The notes under the pieces are model-generated. The model was given only the letters and a program-made list of their open reading frames with translations, was not told the DNA's origin and searched no databases. From positions 168,501-232,500 of the forward strand of contig NC_037598.1 of NCBI RefSeq assembly GCF_003073045.1: a stretch of 64,000 nucleotides of DNA, written 5' to 3'. A program made the position numbers and the translations under genes. Positions 4,938 through 55,420 of the stretch are shown here, piece by piece (the stretch's first letter is position 1; the number at the start of each line of letters is the position of its first letter). The stretch is from Pomacea canaliculata (lineage: Eukaryota; Mollusca; Gastropoda; Architaenioglossa; Ampullariidae).

Positions 4938-9054
<4,117 letters not shown>

Positions 9055-12705: not shown

Positions 12706-14439
12706 CTAGTGAGAGGCAAGACACACACCAGCCATCACTAAATACCACAGGAAGAGGGAGATCCCAGGACGTTTTCTTTGGGAAAGACAAGAAGAGTGAC
12801 AAAACAGGAAAAAGGCAAACATACCGACCACCGGCTTGACTTGGTCTTGCTGAGTCGAAGTTCTGCTTAATGTCGTCATCGTTGTACTGCTGCTGACTGA
12901 AGTTGTGCTGTCCGTTACCGACTGTTCCGTTGTTGTTGTTGCACTGTTGTTGAGGACAGTTTCAGTGTCCATTACTTGCTGTGTTGTTGCTGTTGTTGTA
13001 CTGTTGCTGAATAAGGACAAGGCAGTCAGTGTGCTGTGTCTCTCTGTATCTGTCACAAGGGGCGATGTGGTGATGGCTACTGATTCCTTGGTTATTCGTG
13101 TCACTCCTTTGTTTGAACCGTTGGTCGCTAGAGAGGCCGAGGTGTTGGCTGTGATGGAGGACGTGGAAGGCATGATGGGAGGTGATGTAGGGCTGCCAAC
13201 TAGAACTTGTGTGGTTCTGTCTACGTCAGATTTTATTGTGTAAGTTATGGCACTTGTTGTGTTCCTGACCTCTAGAAGTGTTGTGGTGTTGGATGGTGTA
13301 GATACTGTGGTGATTCCTGGAGCTGTTGTGGCGTCTTTAGTAACCAGAGCGGTTATCGTGCTGTTTGCTGTAGTTTTGGTGATGATCTCACCCTGGGCTG
13401 TTGTATTGCTGGTTATTACGGAGGGTATTGTGGTGTTTGCTGTAGTTTTGGTGATGATCTCACCCTGGGCTGTGGTGTTCTTGGTTATTATGGATGGTAT
13501 TGTGGTATTTATTGTAGTTCCTGTGATGTTCGTTTGTAGTGCTACGGTGGTGCTCGCTAGGGTTGTGCTGGTTCTGGTGCTGGTGCTGATATTGGTAGAT
13601 ACATAAGCTATGGTGCTTGTTTTTGCTGTTGTTGATCTCGTATCTACAGATATCGTGGTGTTTGATACATTAGTTTGTGTGGTATTTGCTTGTGTCTTAG
13701 TAATCCATATTCTTATTATTCCTGTTGTATTATCACGTGGTTTGGTGGATGTGGAAAGCGATGTGACTACCCGTGTCGTAGGTGACCGTGTGGTTGTTAT
13801 GGGCGACGTGTCTTCAGTTACTGGAAACGAAGTGTCTTCAGGCGCAAGAGATGACATGTCTGCTGTGACATCTCCAGACATTGGAGTCTCGTCAGTAACT
13901 GAATTTACTGTACAAATAACATTGGGTTAAAATATTAGATGCATTAGAAGCATTTTCCCATGAAAAGTATAAATTTTTTTTAGAAAACAACAGACTTCAC
14001 GTGTTTAAAATACAACCTCATGAATACAACATTTTTATACATTAAAAAGATGAAGTTATTTCCATTAACCAATACACACATAAATAAATCGATTTTGTTG
14101 ATTTTAAGATAAGAAGCGCTGCGACAAAAAAAAAAAATTGAAACTAAAAACAGAAATTGAAACAAACCTCTTAGAAAGGAAGTATCTTTAAATAGATGAG
14201 AAAATTTACGAAATAATAATTTATAAAAATTTATAAGATTGGCGTATAAATTGTTTTATATTAGTAAATAAAATGTTTGGTTTTTTTTATAAATAGTTCA
14301 CACACATTAGCTCCTTTGTATCACCTTTGAGAAAATTTCTTGAGATTCTAATGTAAAGTTCGAATTCTTGTAATGTTAAAGTCTGACCTGGACTGATAAG
14401 TAGTAATCCAAGAAGATAAACTGCAAAAAGTGCTTTCAT
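12706..14439 (-). CDS. G1: secreted mucin-like Thr/Ser-rich glycoprotein, two exons
   Basis: Exon 1 (14439-14388) encodes the signal peptide MKALFAVYLLGLLLISP and stops in phase 1 at a GT. Exon 2 (13907-12706) continues in frame to a total of about 417 aa. The body is overwhelmingly Thr and Ser with many Asn-X-Thr sites (NTTQTNVSNTT, NITGTTINTT), as expected for a heavily O- and N-glycosylated mucin-like domain. Three 24-residue repeats lie at 13506-13291. The unspliced reading ends in a hydrophobic tail (GISLFLWYLVMAGVCLASH) that could be a GPI signal or membrane segment, as in G2-G4. A possible donor (g|gtatgt near 12823) and acceptor (cccaaag near 12772) would instead give a short tail without an anchor, so alternative forms are possible. 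No enzymatic domain is seen. The upstream TATA and ctagcaaca-like element match the family pattern. Specific function unknown. Confidence 0.75.
13291..13506 (-). repeat. Three 72-bp coding repeats in G1
   Basis: Two units are nearly identical (TTIPSIITKNTTAQGEIITK and TTIPSVITSNTTAQGEIITK, each followed by TTAN). The third is diverged (STITALVTKDATTAPGITTV). The period is 72 bp on the DNA: the + strand string gtttgctgtag recurs at 13363 and 13435. Unit length is a multiple of three, so repeat number can change without breaking the frame. Confidence 0.85.
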
Positions 14440-14534
14440 GTTTTACAGCATATTAGTTGAGGCTAAAGATGTGCTGAGATACTGACTGATCCACGGTCTG
14501 TGGGCCTCTAGCACAGTTCTGTTCAAGTCCTGGC

Positions 14535-14560
14535 TATTTATTATCGACTCCATAGCAACA
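14535..14560 (-). promoter_or_regulatory. G1 core promoter: TATA-like box plus tagcaaca motif
   Basis: On the + strand this reads ctatttattatcgactcc then atagcaaca, so the - strand has an ATAAATA-type box preceded by tgttgctat. It is about 100 bp upstream of the G1 ATG. The same order and spacing occur in front of G2, G3 and G4. Confidence 0.6.
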
Positions 14561-15073
14561 GGAATAATCAAACAAAACACAGTCACAACCCAGGTAAGTT
14601 ACTTGGGACAGGGCGGGACGAGATCACGTGACAGAACATTTTTACATCCTCCATACACACCTGAAGATTCCTTGTGCGAGTAACAATGGGTCTGAATTAC
14701 CTACTGTGTTTTGGATAATTGTCTACCCAAAATTTACCCATTCCTGAAAGGTACAACATATTCTACAACATTATCAGACACAATAATATAACAACACATC
14801 AACTCACCAGCCCGTGAGGTACTCTACTCACAACCACTTCCAGGAGAAGCAGGAATTGTCTATCTTGAAAATAAGCAAAATATCACAAGCGTAGTCTGTA
14901 TTATGATAGATAAATATCATTAGTTATTAACTAAATGGTATGGACCAGAGAGTATTGTACTTCATATAGACGCTGCAAAATAATCACAAAAACGACAACA
15001 AAAACAACAAAATTAAAATGCGATATTCAAAACAACTACTAGTACAATATCAATTTTCGACTCTCTCTGTCTC

Positions 15074-15116
<43 letters not shown>

Positions 15117-17509
15117 AAGAAATGATGCATGCTCGCGCGCACACACACAAAGGCACAAATTAAAAAGTTCGAAAGTACATAAACAGTAAAAGCAAGAATG
15201 TCTAAAAACATCTTTACCTGTAGCAGGAATAAGAAGATCACTACACTATGTACTATGAACATGACAGACCTCCAGAACACAAGAGCAATAATTACTAACA
15301 ACAGTAACTAACAACCATGATATTACAGAGCAGCCTTCATGCCCCTCCAACAGCTCAGCCATCTCCTCACCCTCCTCGCCCTTGTCATCGACACTAGCTA
15401 GTCTCGCTTTTATTTCTGTTTGTTATTTCTTTGTTAAGTTCTGATATATGTGGCCTTAGTCTACTGTTCTCAGGTTAGTTCCGGTGCTAATCATCATATG
15501 CATCGTTGACTATGTTCAAGTGGCCACTACTAATGAAGGGGACTTAATTCAAATGGTCATTACCATGAAGGGACACAACCACTGTACAAAATGAAAGCAC
15601 GGCAGTTAGAAGACTGTTTCAGTACGTTCTCCTTGCATGACCAGACTGTGTTTACTACAAAATAAAAGGTATAAAAATGGATATAAGAGGCATTTTCTCA
15701 GATTTTTTTCCATCTTGTGACAGCCACAACAGTCTGAAGTCATGGAGTTGTATGAACACCACTGTGTAACAAAGCTTTCGGCTCTTGTACTGAGAGTGGT
15801 CTTGTGTACTCTCTAAACTTCAAAGGTATTTGTGATTGTAAACTTTTTACAAACTAACCTCCAGATGTCGACTTTTCAAGGCATATACTTGGTCTTTGGA
15901 GGAGGGCTAGTTCAAGTTTGAGAAGTATTAATTTGTAAAAACATTTTCGAGCCCAGTCATCAGGTAAACATGTTAAGCAACATGTTGGTGGAATGTGATC
16001 TTTGGGTTCAAGAAAAAATAATTGGCATGGCACACGGGTAGTGCACGGGTATGTATGACTGTGTAACAATCTGTTTTTGGCATTTTACATGTGTATCTTC
16101 GTGTGAGTGATTCACGTATGTTTGTGTGCGTGCATGTTCGTATGTGTGTGAATGTGAATTTACGTGTGTGTGTTTTGGTGTGTGTGGATATTTCTGCTGC
16201 TAATATATACTGTATGTAAAACACAATATTTATACATAGTGGATAGTATGTGAGCATGATATGGGGAACAGTTAATGAGAAGCCAAGGAAAAGGTCAGAA
16301 TTTTCTAACACAAACAGACATGTCTTTGGTTTTGTGAGTGGAGGGAGGAGGGTAGGAAGGAATATCGGTCACCAGGCTCCCAATAATTGCAATCTGCATT
16401 CATTGTCAAGAAGACAGAATAATGCCGAAATAAGATTTCATTTTATATCGGGAATATGATAGTGAAATACTTGCACGGATTTACTTGACAAACAGCTGGT
16501 GCGGGAATACAGAGACAATCACAGTTGATAGGTTGAGACTGAAATTTAAAATACCTAATACTAAATGTAAGCACAAGTAAAGCAGTCAGTTCAGTCTTCA
16601 GCTCACGAGAAGCAGATGACTGTACTAAAGTATGCTGACGTTGGCGGCGATGGCGGTGGTGTCCGTGGGAGGCGATGAAGCAGGTAACTGAGATGTTAGC
16701 GCGGTGACGCCTGAGGTCAGAGGTGAGCACGTTAACCTCCTCAATCCTCTTGGGACTGATCATACACTCGAGTGAGCCCACCTGTCGACTGCGCTACCTG
16801 ATCCCTTTGATGATTGTGGAGGGGATCGGCACGGCTCTTACAATGACGGCTGCTCCTCCCCCACCGAGATAAGTGGCAGTGTGAGGAACAAAGATGTTTG
16901 TGTGTCTGTGTGTGTGTGTAAAGCACGTTTAAACGTGTCGGTGGTTAGGTCTCTGACGTAGGAGAAAGCCATTTCTATGTTTTTTTCTGAACATCAGTTA
17001 AAACGGCATCGACCTTATTTTTTTTTGTTTTTTAGTGTCAAACGTCTGTGTGCGCGCGCGTGTTTGGGTGTGCCTGCATATGCGTGTGTGTGTATGTGTG
17101 TGAGAGAGAGGGGTGTGTGTATGAGGAGTGTGGGTGCAAGTGTGTATGTACTTGTATGCATGCTCGCAAGAGAGAGAGAGAAAGAGAGAGAACAACAGAA
17201 AGTATGGGTGCATGAGTCCGATGATACGTGGATTCGAAACCGCCCGTTGCCGTGTGTATTTATTCCTGCCCAAAAAATCTGGGTCTTATATTTGTAGCTG
17301 ATTCATTCAATACTTTTACAGGTGGATGAGGATAAAAGATTAAGGTATAAAGAAATAGGTTAATAGCGATGGGGACTAACAAGTGCATTTCTCATGTGAC
17401 ACTCGAGTACAATCTGCAAAATATTTCATGCCTCATATAATGTTTTGTAAGGCATGAACACCATTCAGTGGAGGATTAACCAAACATTTTAACTCGCCCA
17501 TCTAATGCA
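14561..17509. other. Intergenic region with simple repeats
   Basis: No gene supported. It contains a CT then CA dinucleotide run (15061-15118) and a GT/GA-rich low-complexity stretch (about 17043-17190) that generates open frames on both strands. A tRNA-like box A (tagcgcagtcgacaggtggg on the - strand, about 16770-16800) hints at a decayed SINE but is not enough to call. Confidence 0.45.
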
Positions 17510-18005
17510 AGCTGAACAAATTTTTAAACCTCACGAGCTTGCAAGGAGTTTATTTTCACACGAAGCACCCTGTCGAGCAGGATTCTTGCTGAATGGCACA
17601 ACAGCTTTTGTTACTGTGACTGAGCCGCTGGAGCTCGGGACCACAGCAAACAGTGCACCACGACTCTCCCTCCCATCAATCACACTCTGAATACCTTCAC
17701 CTCTTGAAAGGTACGAATACCTGGCATAGGAGTGTCGGCATTACCACACCTTTTCCTTCATGACAGTAATAGGGAAGACGACCAGAGAAAGGATGCCACT
17801 AGGACTAGCATCAGTCGTGAGAGTACACTTGGAATTAGTAGACACACGTGACATACACTTACCTGGAGTTTTCTTAGAGGTATGGACCACTTGAAAATCG
17901 TCTAGGTGTCCAGCCTGGCCCATCCTCCAGGAGTACCAAAGATGTGGTAAGCACGATGTTGTATTGCCAAAGCAGATGGGCTGTCCTTTGATATCTTTAA
18001 GTCGT
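17510..18005 (-). pseudogene. Immunoglobulin-like domain relic
   Basis: Reading the - strand from about 18005, one frame gives KDIKGQPICFGNTTSC, LWYSWRMG and DDFQVVHTSKKTPGKC. It continues with KCTLTTDASPSGILSLVVFP and KEKVW, then a stop. One base shift further it continues NADTPMPGIRTFQEVKVFRV. The order Cys, Trp, a D/G turn and an aromatic position near the end, followed by a beta-strand-like tail, resembles an Ig-like domain. A following open frame of about 52 codons (17690-17510) includes SSSGSVTVTKAVVPF. There is no start codon, the domain's second conserved Cys is not at its expected place, and a stop and frameshift interrupt it. I read it as a decayed gene fragment or missed exons of a diverged one. 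No paralogue is present in this window. Confidence 0.35.
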
Positions 18006-18204
18006 GAGTATACTGAGGTCAGAGGCTAAGATAGGTCGTGAGCATAGAGAGGTCAGAGACTAAGATAGGTCGTGAGCATAGAGAGGTCAGAAACTAAGAT
18101 AGGTCGTGAGCATAGAGAGGTCAGAGGCTAAGATAGGTCGTGAGCATAGAGAGGTCAGAGGCTAAGATAGGTCGTGAGTATAGAGAGGTCAGAGACAAAG
18201 ATGG
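18001..18204. repeat. 34-bp minisatellite, six units
   Basis: Six head-to-tail copies starting at 18001, 18035, 18069, 18103, 18137 and 18171. Each begins gtcgtgag and contains gaggtcag and aagatag, with only scattered substitutions. There are no unique spacers, so it is a tandem repeat and not a CRISPR. It abuts the Ig-like relic. Confidence 0.95.
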
Positions 18205-19138
18205 GATCTTCTAAAGTGTTTCGTTCCTCATTTGACTCTCTTTAGTTGTCTCTGATAATCTGATAATTTTTAAGGGTAGTTTTTATGATTGAAATTCACA
18301 TCTCGTGTTTTCATAAGTTGAATGGAGTGCACTGCACTGGTCTAGGTTGGTCCACAAATCAGAGAGATACCTTTTGTTGTCTCTTGGTGCCAAACGATGA
18401 GCGGTACAATGACTTGAAAACAATCTTTGATCATAGACAAAAATAAGATAAAGGCGAAGTGGTAAACAGGGCAGCGATGATGACAGTTTCTGAAAACGAT
18501 GATAATAAAGATAAACGAATAAAACTGAAAACTTGAATGTGTTTTCTTTCCTCCGGATATCATACAGACTTCATAAAAATCAAGATACCTGTGATGTAGT
18601 AATAGTTGCATACTTGTGTGCATACTTGTGTGCAGATATGTGTAGGTACTAGAACGAATGATGCAGAAATGTCCTCTGTGTGCATCAATATTTTTGGTAT
18701 GACACCTTGTTGGTGTTATGTTGTGTAATTATAAAGATCAAAGAATTCTCACCAAATCCGTGCGATTCGGCTATTATTCTTTTCTGAGGACTACAATGGT
18801 GAAATAAAAACACGCTCAAGTCATGTTCTTTTTATTCAAGTTGTTAGTAGAGGTCAACACACTTTAATTGCTCGAACAAAGAGGAGCTGAACTGTACTGT
18901 CTAGGCCCTCGGCCTGTCACAATTAAGAAGAGCAGTCGATTGACAGCAAAGAAAGAGTAAGAAACAAATCATTTAACAACCATTCAACTTATTTATTTCA
19001 ACAAAATTAGACTAGTATATGTAAAACTCCAATGGACAATTACAGCTAAGATATCATCTGGAAGGCAGAAGTACAGAGCTGAAAAAAGAGAAAGTAATAA
19101 TATTGAGAACAGACAGGTCCTCAAAAGACATGGAAAAC
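18205..19138. other. Spacer between the minisatellite and G2
   Basis: AT-rich sequence without a supported gene or repeat. Confidence 0.4.
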
Positions 19139-19139
19139 A

Positions 19140-19225
19140 AAACTCTTTTTCTCTAAGGTATCGCAATCCCTAAGACTATGTCTTAGTTCATATTACACTT
19201 GTGTGTTTAGATACCAGAGAGAAAG
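19140..19225 (-). promoter_or_regulatory. Conserved block with hairpin in the probable G2 3' UTR
   Basis: This lies about 410-500 bp downstream of the G2 stop. It contains ctaagactatgtcttag (19170-19186), a perfect 7-bp inverted repeat with a 3-nt loop. A related block with the same stem and a 7-nt loop (33891-33911) lies downstream of G3. Flanking words are also shared (caatccctaagac, gtcttagttcatatta). The UTR assignment is inferred from distance, and no poly(A) site was fixed. Confidence 0.5.
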
Positions 19226-19638
19226 AAAGAGACAGAATAACAGATTTGACAAATTAACAAAATTAAAAGCAAGAGAATTATCGTTTATGTCTTACATTTT
19301 TGTGATTAAATTTCTTCGCTCATTCTTGTGTGTATGCACACAATGATAAAGATTGGAATAGCTGCAATTAGTGCGTTTGTGTACGTGTATAATACGTTGA
19401 TACACATGTATATGGTGACTATTCTCAGCTATTTAAAGGGTTTCAAAAGTTACTATGTAAAAAAGATTGAATCCAGTCACAATACGATGACAGGCAGCAA
19501 TCACAATCTTTAGTCTGGCAATCACGTTTATTGTCGACCTGTACGAGAAATGCCGACTGAAAGTAGTCATTCATGTAGAGAAATGTTTGTCTGTGTTAAC
19601 AGAACGAACTTTTCTCTCAGCCCACAGGAAGGTATACT

Positions 19639-22497
19639 TTAGAAGCCAGCAAGTAGAAGAGCTGTCAACATGAAGATGCTGATGGGAAGCCAGGTGATCC
19701 TTACTTCTTCACCCATGTTATATCCTGAAAAGAAAGACGATAGAAAGAAAATCCAAACTTTTGTATAAATTTGACGACATTTTAAGTAAATAAAAACACA
19801 AACAATGAATCTTCTTCCTGATTCCGGGACACTGATAATAGCGCTAGTGATTTTTATTTTTAAAGTATTTAACGGCAGATATTGTCGGCTAGAAGAGTAA
19901 ATACAAACATTAAAATTAAATCATATTATCTTACCTGTTGTACTGTTGCTGGAGTACTCCGTTGTAGTTGAATTCCCTGATGCTTCAGTTGCACTCCCGG
20001 CTACTGAACTGCCTGTTCCTTGGGGGTCACTCCCGGATGCTGAGCTGCCTGATGCTGCACTTACACCCACGGTTACTGAACTGCTTGTTCTTTGGGGGTC
20101 ATTCCCGGATGCTGAGCTGCTTGATGCTGCATTTACACCCACGGTTACTGAACTGCTTGATCCTTGAGCTGAAGTCCCGGCTTCTGAATTGACTGGTGCT
20201 CCAGTTGTAGTTGTTCTAGTTGAAGCCATAGTTGTAGTAGTAGTAGTAGTTTCAGTACTTGTAGAAGTTGTTGATTCAGATTCGCTCACCGATGAGTCAG
20301 TTGAAGAAGTGTCCGCCGTAGTTCTCCACTGACCTATAGTTGGTGTACGTATATGTCCAAAGTTATTGTAGATACTTCCTGTCCCCTTTACCCTATTCCC
20401 ACCCTGTTACTGGCCTGTCTGGAGAGCTACTCTCTAGCCTGCATACTAAGAAAAATAAAACTACCATGGCATTAATACATCAAACATATATCATCTAATC
20501 AATATCTTGCATCCTGTCGGCCATTTCTATTCTCTCTTCTCGCTGGCTGCCCCCAGTACCTCATACACGAGTCAAGTCTCGTTCTTTAACCTCGCAAATC
20601 TCGCACCACTGCGCACTTCTTACTGGCGGCTTGTTAAAGCAGGAACTGAATATCAAATCTCAACTCTCTGCTGGCTTCTCCCTCTCTAGTTTTCTTATCT
20701 CTTACTTGTCCACACTCTTGCTTAAAACCTTCTAAACTCTACAGAAAAATAAGGCATCCAGATTAAATTGTCTCTGGGCTGTCGCAATGTTACTCATATT
20801 TTTCAAGTGTATATCCCTAATTTTCTGACAGAATATACACCCACTCAACACCTTCACTCTTTCTTTTATCACTCCTTTCAGAGCATGCCCAAAATACAGG
20901 GAGATTCAATCAAGAGGATCGGATTATTTTGTCATGGTTCTCGTTAGGACAAAAATATCTAAGCGAAACACCGAACAGTGTGCTCACCATATCAGTTTGC
21001 ATATCCTACTTAAAAAGTCGAGATACCCGACATCCGAGCGATGAGGTGGGTGGTTCTAAAGTGTAAGCTCCATTTGGTAAATAAAGCAAGGCGTCTTAGT
21101 GTGTCTGTCATAAACCTTACATCATGACACATAATGAAATCGATTACGCATACATCAAGGAATGCACGGTATTTGTTGATTTGTTTGTTTATTTGTTTAG
21201 ATTGTGGAATTAGGATAATAATTATAGAAGAATATTCGGAGCATTTTCGAGTGAATCTCCTTGTTGAAGCGTGTAAGACTTTTGATGAGAGGATGAGTCT
21301 ATGCTGCCCCGCAAAGCTGTGGAATTCCCACTGTATACTCATTGTAATTTTTAAAATGCTATGAAGACATACCTATTCAAAAAATGATTTTGCTAGTTCT
21401 TTTCAAGACTTTGTTTCATACTTGCTGCCATGTGGTAACTTAAAACAAACGACGGCGGACCTGGAAGCGTTTGTGCAAACGTTGAGACCAAGGTCCCGGG
21501 GCGACGACTGAGTATGGTGGCGCCACTTGCCGCGAAATGCGATCAGATAATGTGTCGTATCCACTACCGTTCTAACACAAAGGCGCCGGTTCAGTATCCG
21601 GGTGGCGCAGTGTTTTCTTTGCTTAGACGACCTAGCTGACTCCACAGAGGGTTGACGAAAGTAAGACAACGAGTGATGGAAATAGGCATCCCACCTAACC
21701 TCAAAAAAGCTAGTTCTAGAAAAGTCCAGTTTGCAACACCGCACTCCTCAAACAACCTCAAAAGGTCAATTTCATTTCCATATGTAATGATACTAAGGTT
21801 GTAGATACTAAGGTTTTAGAGTCTGGGTTTATTTCCAACTTTCGGATACCCGTTTGCATATTATTTGCACCTTTTTTCTTGCTACTATAATTTTTGTCAA
21901 ACAGCTGATACACCTCGCATTGTAGTTAACAATATTTTCAAACCCACAGCTACACGTCGCTTTTCCTGTATTATTATATTTCTATTTCTCTTTTGCTTTG
22001 TTCTAACAAGAGAAGAATAATCTCTACAAAACAAACAAAAAACGTTTAGAAACAAGTAAACTCAAAACAATAAAATGAGATTCAAACTTAGTTTCATGAT
22101 TACACTACCTTAAGCTTCATTTAAACAGCAAACTTACTAAATGTCACCATTAAATCATTTTAAATGAAGAAGGTCATAACATCGTTGAAAAAAGAACTTG
22201 ACTGTCTGTCACCAGATATTTGTCAAGTAGATATTTTTTAACAAAAATATTATATAAAACTGTCGCTAATCGAAAACGTCTGGAAGAAAAAAAAAGGATA
22301 GAAGAAGAGCAGGAAAGAATAAAAAAGTGTCGACAATGGTACAAACAACATGTAACAAATTATTATATCTTGTGTCATTATGTGTAATAGAGGGTCACAA
22401 AACTGGGAATTAAGAAATGGATGTTTTCCAGTTATGAAGATGATGTCTTACCCTGGAGTATCAGCAGAAGTGCAAGAACACTGGCTACTCGACTCAT
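19639..22497 (-). CDS. G2: Ser/Thr-rich mucin-like protein with hydrophobic C-terminal anchor
   Basis: Exons on the - strand: 22497-22452 (signal peptide MSRVASVLALLLILQ), 20333-19935, and 19724-19639. All junctions are phase 1 and the frame is continuous, about 176 aa. Exon 2 begins GQWRTTADTSSTDS and is rich in Ser, Thr, Gly and Ala. It holds imperfect internal repeats (SSSVTVGVNAASSSSASG, SSSVTVGVSAASGSSASG). Exon 3 encodes ITWLPISIFMLTALLLAGF and a stop, a short hydrophobic tail typical of a GPI signal or a terminal membrane anchor. Exon 2 start and exon 3 align with G3 (GHWTAATST; SWLPGSIFMLTVLPLGLF), and exon 3 also aligns with G4. No enzymatic domain is seen. The product is predicted to be a surface-anchored glycoprotein. 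Intron 1 is 2.1 kb and holds a SINE-like repeat. Confidence 0.75.
21590..21770 (+). mobile_element. tRNA-derived SINE-like fragment in G2 intron 1
   Basis: Contains a tRNA-head-like ccgggtggcgcagtg followed by a segment from gactccacaga to ataggcatccca. That segment resembles 35891-35955 (gactccacaag ... ataggcaccca). Two diverged copies of a common 3' domain in one window support a short interspersed element. The boundaries are uncertain. Confidence 0.4.
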
Positions 22498-22540
22498 TCT
22501 GGCTTCCATAGATGACAGATCTTCACTTGACATTGATAGC

Positions 22541-22566
22541 ATTTTATAGAGCAGTCCCTAGCAACA
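22541..22566 (-). promoter_or_regulatory. G2 core promoter: TATA box plus cctagcaaca motif
   Basis: The + strand reads attttatag ... cctagcaaca, so on the - strand a tgttgctagg motif is followed about 8 bp later by a ctataaaat TATA box, roughly 45 bp upstream of the ATG. It matches the arrangement before G1, G3 and G4. Confidence 0.65.
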
Positions 22567-22569
22567 GCC

Positions 22570-23386
22570 ATGGGTGGGGAATAAACAGTCGTGACATAGC
22601 CTGACAACGAAAAGCTTCCCTGTGAATATATTAACCCCTTGCATTCGATCTTTCCTTGGAATTCGATTGCTTCATTTGGTGCCACTAGTTTCAACCAGTA
22701 GTTTAGTTCCAGTATTGGTAATATTAACCAATTTATGTTCTTGTTACTGGAATGACTACTTTTTAGACAGCATGTAGGAATAAACATGGGCTTAGGTGAG
22801 TGGCAACACTAGGACACCTTGATGTGCCCTTGAGATGAAGGGCGCCAAGTGTTCATCCAAGTGTTCAACTTGTCCAGGTGACAGTGAACTTAATTTACAT
22901 GAACAAAACAGGTGCAGGAATAACCACTAAAACAACAAAGCGCCATCTATCTGAATGCCATAGAGGATCATTTAAAAGGTAGTCACAATGTAGACGATAG
23001 GAATAAGGAAGAGAGGAAGAAAACAGCGCCCAGACTTTTTAGGTCTCACAACAGAGGGTAAAATGGTTACACATTTACAACAAATATTAGAGTTGTATCA
23101 CAGCCAGTAAAGATCATAAAACTTGACATAATCCAACAGCCTTTCTCTCCAGCATACCACACACACACACACACACATGTGCGCACAATTCCCCGATTCT
23201 ATCCTTTAAATGCACACACACAGTACATACAAGGAATGATACTACCTGCACTGATAAAAAAGAAGAAAGCAGAACAAGAAACATAACCTACAAACATTAA
23301 ATAAACAAAGATAAATATACAGTAAATCGGGAAATCAGTGGATCCTTTCTACAGATACACAAACTTAAACAGTGTAGACGGATGCA
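22570..23386. other. Intergenic spacer
   Basis: No gene supported. A short CA run occurs at 23157-23177. Confidence 0.4.
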
Positions 23387-23604
23387 TTAGAAAATAGAAG
23401 ACATAGAATGTATGCGACCTTCTGAAACATTTCCCGTGTTATTTAAGGGGATGGTCTCAGTTTGATCAACTGTAGCTCTTGACACTTCAACCTGAGAAAA
23501 TCCTTTGCTGTACTGAACGACCACTTGACTGAATGCAAGGTTTTCTCTTGTACAATCCTTTCGAGGACATCTGTATACCACGGCGATTGGCTTGCTTGTT
23601 CGAG
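23387..23604 (-). CDS. Orphan terminal exon, unknown protein
   Basis: Behind a pyrimidine-rich acceptor (tttttctctaacatgttcaag, exon from 23604) lies an open phase-1 frame of 72 codons ending at a TAA (23389-23387). It contains KPIAVVYRCPRKDCTREN, SQVVVQYSKGFSQVEVSRAT and VDQTETIPLNNTGNVSEG. The composition is balanced and not low-complexity. It could be the cytoplasmic tail exon of a membrane protein, but no upstream exon could be assigned in the 3-4 kb on the 5' side. It could also be a chance open frame. The family is not recognised. Confidence 0.3.
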
Positions 23605-26600
23605 CTTGAACATGTTAGAGAAAAACCGCGAAGCGGGACAAATAATTTTTTTTTAAAAAATGGTCATAAAGCATTTCTTTTACCTCTCCCTTTCTATCCA
23701 AGGTGTCTGACTCATACCACCTCACTGTAATATAATGACTTCTTCGAATCCTTTAGCGGAAGTCGTTTCTCTCTGAATACCTGTCGGTTTTTCTAGGGAG
23801 GCGGGTGGGTGAGCAACGGTCCAAGTGTTTATGGAGGGAGCAACATATGAATGATAAAATGAAAAGCAAGCAGAAGTTCGTTTTCCAGCCCACGCCTCTA
23901 GTTGTCCTTTCTGACACCAAATATTTCTTATGTGTAAGTTTATCTATACATAGTTTTTAGTAAGCATTTTTCACAAATAAGATTTGAAAACTTTTTAAAT
24001 ATTAAGTTCCTTGAATTCTTAAGTTACTTTTTGGAATAAAATAAATAAAGGGCTCAAAACCTAAATAACTTGTCTGCTAAACAAAATATAATAAATAAAA
24101 ATGTTACCAATATATTTATATTTTATCAGAAGAGAGAAGGAGCTATCAAGCCAGCAACAAACATAAGGCGACAATAAGTAATTCAGAACTAAGGGTAACA
24201 AAATAGCTCGAGTGTCTGTTAGATAACCAGCTTATTAAAATTTAATTTGTTATAAATATAACAGGTCTCACTAATCTAAAATAATTAAAGTAGGGCTTAA
24301 CAGATTATACTTAGCTAAATATTAAGACATTCTTTCATGCGCGTGTGGTGAGCATGATCTCTAAGTTAAAGATGAATTAAAAAAAAAGAAAAACGCAGAC
24401 AGGTCTTATCTAAATTTAAACTGGCATTTAACACTACTTCCAGCTTCATCCTACCCACAGATTTTTGTGTGCACTGAACTGTACATATATGTAACAACGC
24501 TAAATTTAGAATCGTTTAAACAAAGAGGACAGGATGTTATCCCATGTTATAGACATCTCATGGAAAACAATAACAGCTATAATCTGCTAACCAAGCCTAA
24601 CGATAAATTAATTAAAGTACTTTTTCGAAAACATCATAAATAATATCCGTCAACCTTATTTATTCATAGCCAAAGCCGTGATTAAGCATATATCAGAGTA
24701 ATTAAGGACGGACGGGGCATGTCCTGGACACCGAGAACAGAAGAACACAACAGGAAGAGGGCAACACAAGCAGTGAACACCTCAAACAGTGTGAAGTCCC
24801 CTTTTTTGGTTGAAGCACTTCTCCCTTCCAAACACGAAAACAACAACAACAATTTTAGTTTGTATTTGCAAGGAGACCAGCCAGGGGAAGAGAGCAGCGT
24901 GAGAAGTTCTGGCTTGTCTAAGAGAGGGAAGGAAGGAGAGAAAGAGACTAATCACACGCAGTTCTGTACTGAAACGGTTGAACGTTTGATTTGGAGAAAA
25001 ATAAAAAACAATTACAATTCGAGATACAGGAAATGAAAGATGAGTCTGTGATTGCCTAATATTCTTTGAGTCCTGTGGGATTGCTAGCTTACACTCTGCA
25101 AGGTTCCTAAGAGACGAATATATTGCAAATACTGATTGTTATCTGAACACCGCTAGTCTGTAGCTGAAAGGCTAATCTCTAGCAGTTAGCTAACCAGCTA
25201 TTAACGTGTACATGGTAAAGCTAAAAAAATACACAACAAAAACATGATACTAAAACAAAGGGCGACGAAAGTCAGATGTCAAAAAGGACTCGAGCTTGTA
25301 AGACATTTCACTCTAGGATACATTAGTCGACGAAAAAAACGATGTAGAGTAGCTATTCCTCCCATCTGGAGAGACACACCAGAGGTCAGCAGGTCTATAA
25401 ATAATGCTGTTAGTATGAGTACTGACCACATTCATCTGCGTTTTAAACATGCTAGGTAAGACTATATTGTACTCTTTAACATTGAGACAGAGAGATTGTG
25501 AAGCCCAGCGGTTCTCCTTGTTCAGGGCACGGTAATTCAAAAGTTGAGTCCTACTCTTATGCTTTTGCCTTGATAATAAATAAACACTCAAGTCTAGGTG
25601 TGTCTAGTTCCAGTATAGGCACGCATCTTTTTTACCGAATAGAAGTGTAAGTCTAGAAAAAAGTATGAGTGTAGGTGTGTATGTGTGTGTGTCTGTCAGA
25701 GAGAAAGAGTTTTAGCGATTTTTGTTCTGTCCCCAAGGGAGACTGTCAATACTGAATATAAGAAGCTAAAAATGTAGGAGCTGGCAATGTTATGTGAGCA
25801 AACACAGTTGACAGTTTTGTCATGAAGAAAAAAACAAGTTGCTGTTAACATTGCTTTTGTGAGATTGGATGAAGAGCTTCAGGGTGTTATACCCGTATTT
25901 GCGAAACATTTAAAAGCAGTTTCAAGTGGGGTGGCTGTATGCGGGGCGTGCGCGGACATTAATGCCCTCTTCAGTGGTTAAAAAAGTTGCTGTTGTGGGG
26001 TGGCAGTATACTACTAATGTATGCCATGTATGATTCTTGTACCCGCAGTTCTGTATGCCAGAGTTATTTTACATCTTAAACGGGTTGTGTGCTTTGTTTT
26101 ATGTTTCCCTTTATTTGTTTTTCTAGATGCAATCATGAAAAGAAAGTAACTATTGCTAGCTTAAATTTCGTTATCTATTCGTTTTACTTTTTGTGACCTT
26201 GTTCCCTTCTTCTAGGCCGCATTAGGGGAGATAATGTGTGGCTTACAAGTCTTACAGCAGCAGTTATCTATTGCTCGTCTTTCGGCCTTCAAGTTCTCAT
26301 ATAACATTAAATTTTAAAAAATAATATGCTACCTTTAGAATACTGAATTAAATATTTCATAGTTATAGGAAATGAGTAATGGGCGAAAATGTCATACAGG
26401 ACAAAGTGAACCGGATACAAAATCGATTGCAAAATTCCGCTTACAGAGCCAGCCAGCCAGCCAGCCAGCCGGACAGACAGAGCTAAGTAAAAAAGGTGTG
26501 AAAGCAAATGTAGACATGTAATGCGTAGAACAAAATGTTATCACATCTTTTTTATCAGTTGATACACTTAGTTGCATTAACCAGATACAAACAGGTAGCT

Positions 26601-27941: not shown

Positions 27942-28200
27942 ACTACTTCCTGGTGCGGCAGGTCGGGTGGTACCCAGGTATTTTGCAAGGAGGACCTCGT
28001 GGGAGCCAATCCCGTGACGGAGTGAAGGTGGACAAAGGCCATGGCCAGACTAAGTCTCAACATCAACACAAAGTCACACCTTCCCTTTCACGGCTATTCA
28101 CAGTATTCACACCCACAGACTCTCTCCTTACCGCCAGCGACGCCATTTGTTGTAAACATTTTCTTTTTACTTGTTGTGTTGCCAGGCAGCACGTGTCGGT
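27942..28200 (+). repeat. Dispersed repeat, copy 1
   Basis: About 260 bp matching 31213-31482 in the same orientation. Shared words include acttcctggt, caggtattttgcaag, gggagccaatcccgtgacgg, aaaggccatggccagact, cttaccgccagcga and ttgttgtgttgccaggca. It is preceded at about 27766 by a partial extra copy of its start (aggtcaagtggtgccaaggt). The class is unknown. Confidence 0.7.
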
Positions 28201-29107
28201 AGTTTAGAATCTGTGAGTACAGGTTTGTTCATGTTTTAGTGCATGTAGGTGGCGCTGTGCCATAAATCTATAACATCACAGTGATTAAAATTTTTTTGAA
28301 ACTCATCAAAAAGTCACATAAAATGTGGTACAACAAAATTTTATAGCAGAAGAATACTAAATGAGAAATTTTCGCATTTGTCTAATGCCTTATCGTTACA
28401 TACTAACTTACAAACACATAACATGTAATGAAAAGCTTTAGATAAACCATTATGAAAGAATATGCATTCAGTGCACACACACACACACACGCGCGCGCGA
28501 AACATCCGTTGTGAAATACTAGACACAAAGATACGTGTTCATAGAATAAATTATTTTATTGCTTTTTGGGTTTTCAGTATATCCTTATGTCAAAACAGTA
28601 AATTGATAGTGATTTGTCGAAAAATGTCTAGATGTGATTTGTGGTGATTTTTCTTAGCTACCGTTCCAGTGTCACTAGGTAAATACTCGGGCAAACAGAG
28701 GGAGAGTGTCATTGAAGATGCTGATATGTTACAGCAGTTATGTCCCTGTATAGGAACAGATACAGATACGTATGATAACGCCCCTTCCTCCCCTGACAGT
28801 CTTTATACACTAAAGACTACCTTTAAAAACATACAAAAATAACTATAATAACGACCCAAATGCCTGATTAAAAAACTATAAAAAATATGTTGACCAAATA
28901 TTTTTAAAACAGATTTTTTAACTAACAAGCATTATCTATATATAAACCTCAAACGAATTGTTAGTGTAGAATAGAGAAAAAGTGTAGAGAGAAATAGAGA
29001 AGAGTGACAACCAACGCAGTGGATACAACAGTACTCCTGGTCACTTAAAAGCAAAAGACTACAACTACAATGCTTCCATCTAGTCCTTCCACGTACAGAG
29101 GGAACAT
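28201..29107. other. Intergenic spacer
   Basis: AT-rich, with a short CA/CG run at 28474-28500. No gene seen. Confidence 0.4.
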
Positions 29108-29156
29108 CACCACCACCACCACCACCACCACCACCACCACCACCACCACCACCACC
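29108..29156. repeat. (CAC)n trinucleotide repeat
   Basis: About 16 CAC units. Read on the - strand it gives poly-Gly and artefactual open frames. Confidence 0.95.
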
Positions 29157-31212: not shown

Positions 31213-31482
31213 CCCTACTTCCTGGTACGACAGGTCAAGTGGTCCCAGGTATTTTGCAAGAGGACCCCGTGGGAGCCAATCCCGTGACGGAGTGAAGGTG
31301 AACAAAGGCCATGGCCAGACTGAGCCCCAAGTAGTGCAGAAGATCAGTCACACCTTTCTTGTCAAGGCTTTTCATAGTATTCACACCCACAGGTTCTCTC
31401 TTACCGCCAGCGAGGCCAGGTAACTGCTATTTAATTTGTTGTAAACATTCTTTGACTTGTTGTGTTGCCAGGCAACACGTTT
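31213..31482 (+). repeat. Dispersed repeat, copy 2
   Basis: Second copy of the repeat at 27942-28200, diverged by substitutions and small indels. Both copies end near ttgttgtgttgccaggca followed by acacgt or cacgt. Confidence 0.7.
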
Positions 31483-31844
31483 GTGGGGCGATGCAGTCTA
31501 TAGCAGCTGCTTTGTTCATGTTTTACTGCGTGGGTGGCGATGTGTCCTTTATCAATGTTCGAGGTAGGTCTGAGAAGTAACTGGACTGGTTCTAAAAGAA
31601 AAAAAAACAACAAAATTTTCTCATTTTAAACAACAGCTACGTCGTATGCCCTTTGAAAACAATCCCTCTTGAGCCTAATGCACTTTTTTAAACTTTATAT
31701 GCAAAACACTTTTGCGTTGCTGTGAGGACTCTTCTTGGATTGATAAAAGTAGAAGTTCCTGATGTCTAACGAATATTTTTTTTTTGTTGTACGCAGTCGT
31801 TTGTTATTTATTATTTTTTTTTAGTTTGTATTTGTATGCTAAAT

Positions 31845-33890: not shown

Positions 33891-33911
33891 CTAAGACTAT
33901 ACATGTCTTAG
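33891..33911 (-). promoter_or_regulatory. Conserved hairpin in the probable G3 3' UTR
   Basis: ctaagac ... gtcttag with a 7-nt loop, about 600 bp downstream of the G3 stop. The same stem occurs downstream of G2 at 19170-19186, and about 80 bp around it are related. Confidence 0.5.
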
Positions 33912-34509: not shown

Positions 34510-36781
34510 TTAGAAGAGACCAAGTGGAAGAACAGTCAACATGAAGATGCTGCCTGGCAGCCAGGACATCGCTACATATGTAGCCGTGCTGTTCATCGCT
34601 GGAAACACACCAGAGAACACAGATTAAGGGTGTTGAAAGAATAAACGACCGACACCCAACACATACGCACACACAAAATAAATAAACAAATAAAAAGCTT
34701 TTCAAATTGTGATCGCACTGCTGCCTAGGGATTTATATGCCAACTTCTCCTTAAGAAGACTTAAATATAGTTAATATTAAAACGCATAAATAAGAGAAAA
34801 TCGACAAATATTTGTATGAATGAACATTTTTACTTCAATGGTCGCATTTTTTACAACATGTTATGTTGTCATGTACCTGTTGCGGTAGTAGTTACACTTC
34901 CATTGCCTGCATTTCCATTCCCTGGTGACGTGGTTGTAGGAGCTGCAGTTGAATGCGCTGATGTTGATGCGTCAGTTGAAGCTGAAGTTGAAGTTGCTGC
35001 AGTCCAATGACCTACACATATTTTATCGACTGTTAAATTTTAAACACTAACAGAACAAACTGTCAATCATAACTAATAACTGTGATATACATTCTTTTAG
35101 GTGAGATAAGTACTTGTAGATTGGTCATCAGACTGACGAGACACTTGTTGTGACCTACAAACATGAGTCTGCTGCCGAGAGTTCTTGCACCTGCCATGCT
35201 GCTTACAGACTTCCGCACATGACACTTTCTGTCCAGACAGAGATTGCACGTGAAGGTACAGTCTGTATGTCATGCTGTTCACACAACTGATATCTACCTG
35301 CTTAATGTGATTAATGGTGTCTTTACTACACTGGATATCGGTGATAACTCTCTCCTTACCATGCATTTGTCTGCGACTTTTGACACAAATAATCACACTT
35401 TGAACGAATAGCAGGGCTGAGTCTTGTGAGCCGTGTGACGAGATGTGAGGAGAGTGAATGACATGTGTACGCAAAGTGCGAGTAATGTACGTAACATGTG
35501 AAAATTGTGAACGTGTGAGAGTTTAAGTGACGTGTGAATAATGCACTAATATGTGAACTTTGTAGTAACGTCGCGTGCTGGACCCGGCTGTATGAAGGAT
35601 GGGAACCAGTGTTTGGTATACTACAGCAATATCAACAACAGCACATCGCCATGATCACCAGAGACCGACACATTAGACTAATGCCACCTAGTGTCGCCGT
35701 AAACGACTGCAACAGCAACCTGAGACAAACCACGTGACAAACGTGTGACAGCAAGCAGGGCTGAGACAAGAGTACAAGGACTTCATCACACAAGGCTGAG
35801 GGGTTAGAGCACTGAGATCGAATTCCGAAGCACGGACACGATATCCGTCTGGTAGAGCACACGTCAACAGTCGGCTCAGGTGTTGGTCACGGAAGCCTGA
35901 CTCCACAAGGGAGTGGTGAGGGTAAAGCAAAGAGGGAGTGGGGATAGGCACCCAGCACGAGCTAGCACCGAAAAGATTGAGTTTACCCACCTTTTGTTTT
36001 GAAAAAAATGTTACAAAAAGTTAGGGCATGACCTTTACCCTCTTAACCTCAAAACACACCAATGTAGCCACGATCACACACTTTATAATAAACACTTGTC
36101 ATCGTTCGATAATCCTGATTACAAAATCCACCTGCGGTCGATAAAAATACAATAAAGTCCTTACAGTGATTATTTCTCCATGTTATATATCATAGTAAAA
36201 TCATACACCTAGACTTTATTATTTATAAGAACCATTACTCTAGTCTAAATAATGTTAGGCTCTCCACTTTTCGAGGGATTTTGTTTGCATAAAATTCACA
36301 CCCTCCTCCGATAAACATTGTGGAACAGCTTATAAAGTGATAACTTAGGTGAATAATATTTTTAACTGAAAAACTCATGCTGTATTCACATACTCCTCAC
36401 CAGTAAAACTTTAGCCTCTCTGTTTACCTCGAATGAGTGGACATCATCTCCATAAAAATTACCACAAATAAACCCAAAGAGAAAAATATTTACAGCACGT
36501 AAGCGCAAAACAGAAACATTCGATTAAATCCTAGTTCCTATGCTTCTTTACTAGATTACAGCAGTTCACACCCAACCACCTTAAAGTCAAACAAATAATA
36601 ACATCTATTGAAATGCTTCAAAGCCTTTTCTTTTTAATAAAACTGACAATATAGAACTATTTAAAAAAATAAAATTAGCACTGATGAAAATAGCAATGCT
36701 GAATTTTGTAAGTTATCAGTGCGTCTTACCATGCAGCATGAGCAGAAGAGCAAGGAAACTGTAGATAGCTAATGTCTTCAT
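34510..36781 (-). CDS. G3: small mucin-like protein with hydrophobic C-terminal anchor
   Basis: Exons on the - strand: 36781-36730 (signal MKTLAIYSFLALLLMLH), 35011-34877, and 34598-34510. All joints are phase 1, giving about 91 aa. Exon 2 encodes GHWTAATSTSASTDASTSAH and a Gly/Asn/Thr stretch (NGNAGNGSVTTTAT). Exon 3 encodes MSWLPGSIFMLTVLPLGLF before the stop, nearly the same as the G2 tail. The predicted product is a very short Ser/Thr-rich peptide held at the surface by a GPI anchor or tail anchor. The donor of exon 2 is gtacat, weaker than usual. A possible decayed Cys-rich exon (CAEVCKQHGRC, about 35215-35160) lies in intron 1 but does not fit phase 1. Confidence 0.65.
35750..35990 (+). 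mobile_element. tRNA-derived SINE-like element
   Basis: Contains a box A-like ggttagagcactga followed by a box B-like gatcgaattcc. After these comes a body from gactccacaag to ataggcacccag, which resembles 21650-21705. It lies in intron 1 of G3 in the + orientation. The ends are not fixed. Confidence 0.45.
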
Positions 36782-36831
36782 TGCTGCTTGATAAGATACT
36801 AACGGGTGCCCACCTCAAGGCAGCAACGATA

Positions 36832-36859
36832 GCCTTTTATTGACTCCCCCCTAGCAACA
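36832..36859 (-). promoter_or_regulatory. G3 core promoter: TATA-like box plus ctagcaaca motif
   Basis: The + strand reads gccttttattgactcccccc then ctagcaaca. On the - strand tgttgctag precedes a caataaaagg box, about 55 bp upstream of the ATG. Confidence 0.6.
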
Positions 36860-40846: not shown

Positions 40847-40970
40847 CAGTGGTACCTCGACATACGAGTGCCCTGACATACGAGTGTTTTGAGATACGAG
40901 CCGCCGAGCGAGCGATATTTTGCTTCGAGATAAGAGCAAGATTTGAGATACGAGGACTCGCACATTACAC

Positions 40971-41021
40971 CGCTGCACACGACCCCAACATGCGGGGCGG
41001 ATGTTGGGGTCGTGTGCAGCG
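40971..41021. repeat. Perfect 21-bp inverted repeat (hairpin) inside the Tigger-like element
   Basis: The arms 40971-40991 and 41001-41021 are exact reverse complements. They are GC-rich, containing gcacacgaccccaac and gttggggtcgtgtgc, and are separated by the 9-nt loop gcggggcgg. The hairpin lies between the subterminal repeats and the transposase-like frame. Confidence 0.95.
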
Positions 41022-41169
41022 TCTAACAGTTTCTCCCACCTCAGACTAGACCTCAGTCTGTGTTGTGTGCTTGTTTCCCTCGTTTTCGAAGCATTTTTGA
41101 TAAGTTGGGTTCGCGTTTTTTTTGCTTTTTGTACATTTACTAAACATTATCCCATTTATTTTTGTAACC

Positions 41170-41541
41170 ATGGGTCCGAAAAAGAAGATGATGTCTATTG
41201 AATTAAAGCGCGAAATCGTAGAAAAACATGAGCAAGGTGTGCGAGTAATTGACTTGGCGAGGATGTACGGGTGTAGCACATCAATGATATGTTCTGAGCT
41301 TAAACAGGAGTTGATAAAGGGTACAACGCCAGCTAGGGGCGTTACAATAATTTCTAAGCTCCGGACTTCTCTCCATGAAAAGATGGAGAAACTATTGACT
41401 GTGTGGGTGACAGAGAAGCAGCTTCAAGGAGGAACCTTAACACAAAGCATCATGTGTGAGAAGGCACGAGCGATTTACGGTGATTTGCTGAAGCAGATCC
41501 CACACACTTCCACAAACGAAGAATTTAATATGTTTTTATAG
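41170..41541 (+). CDS. Tigger transposase DNA-binding region only, 123 aa, intact frame
   Basis: An ATG start in good context (accatgg) opens a frame whose N-terminus (KKKMMSIELKREIVEKHEQG, then VRVIDLARMYGCSTSMI) is the psq-type helix-turn-helix of CENP-B/Tigger transposases. Residues about 70-115 (KLLTVWVTEKQLQGGTLTQS, then IMCEKARAIYGDL) match the second, CENPB-type HTH. The frame ends shortly after at a TAG, and AATAAA follows at about 41561. The DDE catalytic domain, normally a further 250 or so residues, is absent, so the product cannot transpose by itself. It could bind element ends and interfere with an autonomous relative, or it could be a remnant. Confidence 0.8.
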   Translation: MGPKKKMMSIELKREIVEKHEQGVRVIDLARMYGCSTSMICSELKQELIKGTTPARGVTIISKLRTSLHEKMEKLLTVWVTEKQLQGGTLTQSIMCEKARAIYGDLLKQIPHTSTNEEFNMFL

Positions 41542-41765
41542 AATATGTATTTGTTATTCATAAATAAATGTTTCTTCTTGTAAATACACTTTTTCTTATT
41601 CAAAAACACTTAACAAAAACAACTGAGGTGGTGTTTTGGGAGCTGGAACGGATTAATGACATTTCAATGAATTTCAATGGGGAAAATTGCTTTGAGATAC
41701 GAGCAATTTGACATACGAGCAAGGTTACGGAACGAATTAAACTCGTATGTCGAGGTACCACTGTA

Positions 41766-44090: not shown

Positions 44091-55318
<11,228 letters not shown>

Positions 55319-55391
55319 CCTCGCTTAGTGTTGAGATGTGATAAGAAACCTACGATACCAAAATGTCTTGGTCTACACACCACCATCGGCT

Positions 55392-55420
55392 TCTTATAGA
55401 GGAGTCCTTAGCAGCAACAG
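55392..55420 (-). promoter_or_regulatory. G4 core promoter: TATA box plus ttagcagcaaca motif
   Basis: The + strand reads ttcttatag ... cttagcagcaacag. On the - strand a tgttgctgctaag element, which has an extra gca compared with G1-G3, precedes a ctataagaa box about 75 bp upstream of the ATG. Confidence 0.6.

What the first reader, a model, noticed from the sequence alone, without database searches (positions are those of the whole stretch)
12706..55420. Four-member minus-strand family of signal-peptide plus mucin plus anchor genes
G1-G4 share a short first exon (46-52 nt) that encodes only the signal peptide and ends in phase 1, a Ser/Thr-rich body, and a hydrophobic C-terminus. In G2-G4 the terminal exons clearly align (WLPISIFMLTALLL, WLPGSIFMLTVLPL, WIPNGLSLMTAFLL). 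Sizes range from about 91 to 498 aa. The pattern suggests tandem duplication followed by fast change of the extracellular part while ends and promoter stayed constant. It recalls polymorphic surface-glycoprotein clusters in snails (analogy only).
Basis: partly seen in the sequence, partly recalled or inferred. Interest (0 to 1): 0.75.

Follow-up and report, generated by a model that had tools for sequence, protein, structure and literature searches.

The report
Snail cell-surface protein gene cluster
Four neighbouring genes, very likely of the apple snail, look set to make proteins anchored to the cell surface; they share a promoter design with other, partly related genes along the same stretch of chromosome, and what they do is not known.

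Summary
The four-gene family is real but was drawn too small and partly misread. All four genes have a 46-52-nt signal-peptide exon ending in phase 1. G2-G4 share a C-terminal exon. G4 is not a plain mucin: between its signal exon and Ser/Thr stalk lie nine Cys-rich exons, all flanked by phase-1 sites; two of the four 6-Cys ones pass Pfam's EB cut-off. Part of this block is duplicated inside the gene at about 95% identity. G1's tail is unsettled.

The genome is very probably Pomacea canaliculata. The window lies within a stretch of contig C9 that holds many related module exons: 41 of 41 matches at E<=0.001 to a peptide composed from C9 modules are on C9, 40 at 141-1012 kb. A promoter model built from ten C9 sites outside the window ranks the four window promoters 1-4.

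Best reading: one C9 family of probably GPI-anchored surface proteins with a shared core promoter and a modular ectodomain; G1-G3 are stalk-only members. Tail homology to module genes outside the window was not found. Function, polymorphism and GPI attachment are untested.

The parts
14534..14559 (-). G1 promoter element GTTGCTATGG...ATAATAAAT, 120 nt before the ATG
   Evidence: rank 4 of window positions, score 16.7
14388..14439 (-). G1 signal-peptide exon, MKALFAVYLLGLLLISP, 52 nt, phase 1
12825..13907 (-). G1 Ser/Thr-rich body exon (1083 nt, phase 1-1 if spliced at 12825; otherwise reads on to 12706)
12031..12128 (-). G1 candidate tail exon, ...WSRVTVAMLMIFKAVI-stop; weak
   Evidence: not recognised by the G2-G4 tail profile
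22540..22565 (-). G2 promoter element GTTGCTAGGGACTGCTCTATAAAA
   Evidence: rank 2, score 22.6
22452..22497 (-). G2 signal-peptide exon, MSRVASVLALLLILQ, 46 nt
19935..20333 (-). G2 Ser/Thr-rich body exon (acceptor weak)
19639..19724 (-). G2 tail exon, WLPISIFMLTALLLAGF-stop
36833..36858 (-). G3 promoter element GTTGCTAGGGGGGAGTCAATAAAAGG
   Evidence: rank 1, score 30.9
36730..36781 (-). G3 signal-peptide exon, MKTLAIYSFLALLLMLH, 52 nt
34877..35011 (-). G3 Ser/Thr-rich body exon (acceptor weak)
34510..34598 (-). G3 tail exon, WLPGSIFMLTVLPLGLF-stop
55391..55418 (-). G4 promoter element GTTGCTGCTAAGGACTCCTCTATAAG
   Evidence: rank 3, score 18.2, best register 55415
55267..55318 (-). G4 signal-peptide exon, MSPTTLYCLLGLVLIVP, 52 nt
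53703..53795 (-). G4 4-Cys module exon a1
53300..53416 (-). G4 6-Cys EB module exon 6C1
   Evidence: PF01683 29.4 bits against 24.3 (C9:221801-221926)
52801..52895 (-). G4 degraded 4-Cys module b1 (frame broken, or used only to 52833)
52254..52316 (-). G4 short 3-Cys exon, uncertain
51151..51270 (-). G4 6-Cys module exon 6C2
50496..50582 (-). G4 4-Cys module exon a2
49010..49087 (-). G4 4-Cys module exon b2
48072..48191 (-). G4 6-Cys module exon 6C3 (duplicate of 6C2)
47417..47503 (-). G4 4-Cys module exon a3 (duplicate of a2)
46740..46817 (-). G4 4-Cys module exon b3 (duplicate of b2)
45610..45732 (-). G4 6-Cys EB module exon 6C4
   Evidence: (PF01683 25.0 bits against 24.3)
44725..45078 (-). 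G4 Ser/Thr-rich stalk exon with 7-aa repeats (SSHAVET); both splice sites weak
44091..44179 (-). G4 tail exon, WIPNGLSLMTAFLLVGL-stop
46499..51847 (.). intragenic duplication in G4: 48769-51847 versus 46499-48764, about 95% identical, each copy holding 6C-a-b

Best explanation
G1-G4 belong to one gene family on contig C9 of what is very probably Pomacea canaliculata, encoding surface proteins with a fixed frame and an interchangeable middle. Seen in the sequence: a shared promoter element (GTTGCTA.GG about 15-20 nt before a TATA-like box), a short signal-peptide exon ending in phase 1, nine Cys-rich module exons in G4 all flanked by phase-1 sites, and a last exon with a hydrophobic C-terminus (G1's is open). 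The middle is Cys-rich EB/EGF-like modules in the four C9 genes followed outside the window, modules plus a Ser/Thr stalk in G4, and a Ser/Thr stalk alone in G1-G3. Phase 1-1 exons can be duplicated or dropped without breaking the frame; one such duplication, of three exons, is recent in G4. Inferred: the tail is a GPI-attachment signal, the stalk is O-glycosylated, the shared promoter makes the genes active in the same cells, modules bind something, and stalk-only members form a coat or spacer. A role in defence or recognition at an exposed cell surface is the guess I would test first.
For: Promoter: a model from 10 distinct C9 sites outside the window ranks G3, G2, G4, G1 as the top four of about 128,000 positions (30.9, 22.6, 18.2, 16.7; 30 Markov-random 64-kb sequences gave maxima of mean 15.1, sd 2.2, highest 20.5). 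The 27-nt pattern with up to 2 mismatches occurs 11 times in 440 Mb, all on C9, 0 for the reversed control. Modules: phase-blind profiles find nine strong modules in the window, all in G4, and each is flanked by phase-1 sites. 6C4 and 6C1 pass the EB cut-off; 36 of 39 six-Cys modules chosen from C9 match EB at E<=0.01. 41 of 41 matches at E<=0.001 lie on C9, 40 at 141-1012 kb, two of them G4's (the query was composed from C9 modules, which favours C9). Similar build outside: promoter, 46-49-nt phase-1 signal exons in three of four genes, module exons in four of four, hydrophobic terminal exon candidates in three. Intragenic duplication. Tails of G2-G4.
Against: The G2-G4 tail profile does not recognise tails outside the window (best 4.0 bits, a candidate in L052; 2.1 bits at C9:134237; the C9:146364 tail ranks 15th of 154 by ungapped BLOSUM62). 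The G3 tail finds only itself in the genome; the C9:146366 tail finds itself and one weak C9 match, E 0.54. So the link of G1-G3 to the module genes rests on promoter, signal-exon design and neighbourhood. G4 and G1 promoter scores alone lie within the range of random maxima. The 4-Cys exons tested match no Pfam family (a2, b2 none; a1 only a sub-threshold toxin model, 15.4 against 21), and b2 finds only itself, b3 and a weak C14 place. EB modules are not special to C9: of 150 scored EB matches 9 are on C9, most are on C2. No module remnant in G1-G3 introns. Phase 1-1 was imposed in the exon scans outside the window. Several splice sites are weak. No transcript, GPI predictor or other species.
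Confidence: 0.7

Rival explanations
1. One reading: an isolated four-gene mucin family made by local tandem duplication, unrelated to EB-module genes; G4's modules belong to a separate gene.
For: Tails of G2-G4 are alike and no copy was recognised elsewhere in the genome. G1-G3 have no Cys module.
Against: G4's module exons lie between its signal and tail exons, on its strand, in the matching phase. The promoter is shared with module genes. The scans found no second promoter or signal exon between 53795 and 45610 on the minus strand.
Confidence: 0.15
2. Unrelated secreted genes whose promoters look alike because they use the same transcription factor; similarity is convergence, not descent.
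For: The left half of the element resembles an RFX X-box half-site (X-box consensus RYYNYY N1-3 RRNRAC, PMC2375033 passages). Tails do not match across the window border.
Against: Only 3 of 16 elements fit the full X-box consensus. At up to 2 mismatches all 11 sites of the 27-nt pattern are on C9, 12 of 13 with the 26-nt pattern; common descent explains that better than general factor binding.
Confidence: 0.1
3. Part of the set is decaying: G1-G3 and some G4 modules are pseudogenes or module-stripped remnants.
For: Module b1 has a broken frame; weak acceptors in G2 and G3 bodies; exon and intron divergence are equal in the recent duplication (14 of 285 versus 75 of 1966, p = 0.41).
Against: Modelled bodies, signals and tails of G1-G3 are open and the promoter elements are kept. 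All Cys are kept between the duplicated modules, though so few changes prove little.
Confidence: 0.15
4. The tails are transmembrane anchors or mark secreted proteins, not GPI signals.
For: No GPI predictor was run.
Against: The hydrophobic run is at the very end, with no charged cytoplasmic tail, in G2, G3 and G4.
Confidence: 0.2

Closest known systems
EB-module proteins (Pfam PF01683)
   Same: Two of G4's four 6-Cys exons pass the EB cut-off; 36 of 39 C9 six-Cys modules match at E<=0.01.
   Different: G4 modules are single exons, 6-Cys ones mixed with 4-Cys ones of which the three tested match no Pfam family above cut-off, with a Ser/Thr stalk and hydrophobic end; G1-G3 have none. EB matches on C2 lie in open frames of up to 568 aa.
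Biomphalaria GRC/PTC clusters of single-pass transmembrane genes (PMC7494358, passages; PMC4361660, listing only)
   Same: Clustered snail genes for surface proteins.
   Different: There single-pass transmembrane and hyperdiverse; here a C-terminal hydrophobic tail without cytoplasmic part, EB modules, and no polymorphism data. No sequence comparison was made.
Trypanosoma cruzi MASP family (PMC5636173, start of the abstract in the listing)
   Same: Conserved flanking regions with a strikingly variable centre, as the abstract puts it.
   Different: Parasite genes; likeness of plan only, not kinship.
Gel-forming mucins (features recalled, from no call)
   Same: Long Ser/Thr-rich stretches in G1-G3.
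   Different: No Pfam family at E<=0.1 in the G1 or G2 body; small.

Membership tests
EB-module proteins | PF01683 match above the curated cut-off | tested here: met
   For G4: 6C4 25.0 bits and 6C1 29.4 bits against 24.3; 6C3 alone is below at 18.5; the 4-Cys exons a1, a2, b2 do not match.
EB-module proteins | module present in G1, G2 and G3 | tested here: not met
   Profiles of 39 six-Cys and 13 four-Cys modules find strong modules only in G4.
C9 module-gene family defined here | shared core promoter before a short phase-1 signal exon | tested here: met
   four of four window genes; outside, three of four genes followed (no signal exon found by the scan at C9:110450).
C9 module-gene family defined here | tail exon homologous to that of module genes outside the window | tested here: not met
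   Same place, phase and hydrophobicity (phase 1 was imposed by the scan), but no significant sequence match. Tails are short, so a miss is weak evidence. The family is defined here by promoter and signal exon, not by the tail.
GPI-anchored proteins | N-terminal signal peptide and C-terminal hydrophobic end | tested here: met
   G2-G4, by hydropathy only; no predictor. G1 open.
GPI-anchored proteins | GPI attachment | not testable with these tools
   Needs PI-PLC or mass spectrometry.
Biomphalaria GRC/PTC transmembrane clusters | single-pass transmembrane segment followed by a cytoplasmic part | tested here: not met
   G2-G4 end within or a few residues after the hydrophobic run. That the GRC/PTC proteins have a cytoplasmic part is recalled.
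Biomphalaria GRC/PTC transmembrane clusters | hyperdiverse alleles | not testable with these tools
   One genome only.
RFX X-box promoters | RYYNYY N1-3 RRNRAC | tested here: not met
   3 of 16 elements fit in full.
Gel-forming mucins | VWD / cystine-knot domains (recalled) | tested here: not met
   0 Pfam families at E<=0.1 for the G1 and G2 bodies; G3 not scanned.

The most novel reading that the evidence does not exclude
An array near the start of contig C9 that works as a surface-protein generator: a constant promoter, signal exon and GPI exon around phase-symmetric cassettes (4-Cys, 6-Cys, Ser/Thr stalk) that are multiplied and dropped within and between genes, giving each snail a varying set of co-expressed recognition or coat proteins, with G1-G3 the cassette-free extreme.
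Probability: 0.25. Interest if true: 0.65.

Novelty: new member of a known kind. Interest (0 to 1): 0.45.

Why it matters
If right, an invasive snail carries a clustered family of surface proteins with one promoter design and modular ectodomains, of which I saw no description in eight literature searches of the held library (of several only the best part of a long list was shown). It gives a ready panel for asking whether snail surface repertoires vary between individuals, and the promoter lets a member without any recognisable domain be assigned to the family.

Tried and rejected
RFX control: the element looked like an X-box half-site, but only 3 of 16 fit the full published consensus; dropped. 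The plain element GTTGCTANGGANTC with 2 mismatches is no more common in the window than by chance (4 against 3.9); only the combination with the TATA-like part, the position and the outside-trained model carry weight. With 3 mismatches the genome-wide pattern is not above its control (39 against 45).

Exon scans: with strict splice thresholds the first scan found no internal exon in any of the four genes; I lowered the thresholds. All exon scans asked for phase 1-1, so the shared phase is partly by design; the independent part is that nine modules found by phase-blind profiles are all flanked by phase-1 sites. Raw counts of Cys-rich phase 1-1 exons are not above a reversed-sequence control (minus 20, plus 9; controls 22 and 2; nine control rows come from one tandem repeat). 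The profiles were trained on the window modules, and the profiles contain window modules, so those E-values are circular; independent support is Pfam and the matches elsewhere.

Positive selection: exon b2/b3 differs at 8 of 78 sites against 75 of 1966 in introns (p = 0.012), but the three exons together do not (p = 0.41), and one intron stretch is as divergent; not claimed. A weak module look-alike in the G3 intron at 36131-36060 did not score with the broad profile. No solved structure matched the 6-Cys profile at E<=0.1. The module's predicted fold (mean pLDDT 87.3, pTM 0.55, one two-strand element) could not be compared with known folds, because that tool was off. Ten other open frames gave no Pfam match above cut-off; no tRNA and no Rfam family in the window. 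PMC9178244 (apple-snail immunobiology, passages) holds none of the terms EGF, expanded, gene famil or pattern recognition.

Dropped before counts: one of the 11 promoter sites (C9:2363756, same letters as C9:605375) in training the model; the loci copies of two window modules and one overlapping variant before alignment A5 (38 found, 35 kept, plus 4 from the window).

Full report
WHERE IT IS. The window is G000:C9:168501-232500 of a genome of 440,159,624 bases in 24 contigs; C9 has 27,161,898 bases (contig length). The published Pomacea canaliculata assembly has 440,071,717 bases, with 14 chromosome scaffolds, the shortest 27.2 Mb (PMC6129957, passages). The totals differ by 88 kb. I take the species as very probable; no tool gave a name.

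THE FOUR GENES. On the minus strand there are four first exons that encode only a signal-peptide-like sequence and stop in phase 1: G1 14439-14388, G2 22497-22452, G3 36781-36730, G4 55318-55267. 68-120 nt before each ATG stands GTTGC followed by a TATA-like box; a simple pattern finds these four and one further place, on the plus strand. G2, G3 and G4 end in a short phase-1 exon coding W(L/I)P followed by a hydrophobic end. The G2 and G3 tails align as DNA at 82% over 57 bp. G1-G3 bodies, as modelled, are 43, 53 and 48% Ser+Thr and have no Cys.

Between the signal exon and the Ser/Thr exon of G4 lie nine Cys-rich exons, five with 4 Cys and four with 6 Cys, all flanked by phase-1 sites, plus one degraded module at 52895-52801 and a 3-Cys exon at 52316-52254. 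The last 6-Cys exon scores 25.0 bits and the first 29.4 bits against Pfam EB, whose cut-off is 24.3; 6C3 scores 18.5. Of the 4-Cys exons tested, a2 and b2 match no family and a1 only a toxin model below its cut-off (15.4 against 21). Three exons (6C, a, b) sit in a stretch present twice at about 95% identity. Joined in order, with the 3-Cys exon and without the degraded module, the exons give an open frame of 486 codons with 49 Cys. The sites around the Ser/Thr exon are weak, so this model needs cDNA.

THE FAMILY OUTSIDE THE WINDOW. I read 100 kb on either side (5000 bases of the right side read N). To the left, on the plus strand, promoters of the same build stand at C9:81594, 92795, 110450, 128868 and 139895. 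I followed four of these five. A 46-49-nt phase-1 signal exon was found for 81594, 128868 and 139895, not for 110450. EB-like phase 1-1 exons follow all four (one low-scoring exon only at 128868), and three have a candidate hydrophobic terminal exon. To the right nothing of the family was seen as far as 332 kb. A tblastn with one G4 module gives 43 matches at E<=10, 38 on C9, 35 of these at 143-1012 kb, three being G4's own; only 6 of the 43 have E<=0.01. A majority-style peptide composed from C9 modules gives 41 matches at E<=0.001, all on C9, 40 at 141-1012 kb; the choice of query favours C9. Counts are lower bounds, since only the best candidates are scored. EB modules as such are not special to C9: the Pfam model gives 150 scored of 589 candidates, 9 of them on C9 and most on C2:18.94-18.99 Mb (its control genomes ring in 2 of 14, none over the cut-off). 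The C2 matches lie in open frames of up to 568 aa; I did not study C6 or C7. The 4-Cys exon b2 finds only itself, b3 and a weak place on C14.

THE PROMOTER TEST. The 27-nt pattern GTTGCTANGGNNGACTNNNATAAAAGG with up to 2 mismatches occurs 11 times in the genome, all on C9, against 0 for the pattern read backwards. I trained a two-part score on ten of these sites, all outside the window, and scanned the window on both strands. The four best positions are the promoters of G3, G2, G4 and G1, all upstream of the signal exons. G3 and G2 exceed all of 30 random sequences; G4 and G1 do not on score alone, and stand out by where they are. This is the strongest link between mucin-like G1-G3 and the module genes.

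WHAT DOES NOT FIT. The tails of G2-G4 do not match those of module genes outside the window, by profile or by ungapped scoring against 154 candidate terminal exons. One tail outside reads SWLLNGSILTLLMTLYLL and another SWLLTGSIITCLVTLCLP (L040); they resemble each other and, to the eye only, the G3 tail. A genome search with the first finds itself and a weak C9 match (E 0.54); one with the G3 tail finds only itself. No module remnant was found in G1-G3 introns. The X-box idea failed.

HOW IT PROBABLY WORKS. Seen in sequence: promoter element, signal exon, phase-symmetric cassettes in G4, hydrophobic end. Inferred: the same cells switch on many of these genes; the products enter the secretory path; the tail is exchanged for a GPI anchor; Ser/Thr stalks are O-glycosylated; EB/EGF-like tips bind a partner, and stalk-only members serve as coat or spacer. 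The recent three-exon duplication in G4 and the degraded module suggest gain and decay of cassettes within one gene. Divergence between the duplicated copies is near the intron rate (14 of 285 versus 75 of 1966), so no selection for change is shown.

COMPARISON. By domain G4 is an EB-module protein; G1-G3 are not. The plan is like other surface families with constant ends and a changing middle, for example T. cruzi MASPs (start of an abstract), without kinship. The Biomphalaria GRC/PTC clusters are described as single-pass transmembrane and hyperdiverse; the first is not met here and the second could not be tested. I saw no paper on this cluster in the listings; long lists were shown only in part, and subscription journals and preprints are mostly outside that library.

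VERDICT. A real gene family, larger and different from what was described: new as a family as far as I could search, known in kind.

Noticed in passing
window 383-883, 8210-8425, 8560-9054 (+); C9 window-relative -16519 and -10978: Tandem Cys-loop receptor genes: the 8210-8425 exon hits Neur_chan_memb PF02932 (34.1 bits, cut-off 28.1), and four similar last exons lie in a row. Tandem nAChR expansion is known in molluscs (PMC6896357, passages).
   Followed up: partly
window 41104-41541 (+): Transposase-like open frame; HTH_Tnp_Tc5 just below its cut-off (21.5 against 22.2 bits).
   Followed up: no
window 49341-50159: About 820 bp present in only one copy of the G4 duplication, with a 26-bp inverted match at its edges; perhaps a mobile-element insertion.
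   Followed up: no
window 52895-52801 (-): A module of G4 with a broken frame; gene decay or assembly error.
   Followed up: partly
G000:C2:18.94-18.99 Mb; also C6:13.29-13.42 Mb and C7: Many EB-module matches; on C2 in open frames of up to 568 aa.
   Followed up: no
window 27943-28259 and 31215-31544: Dispersed repeat, 78% identical.
   Followed up: no
G000:C9:2363756, 2387896 and 3712751: Promoter-like sites of the family well away from the main array.
   Followed up: no
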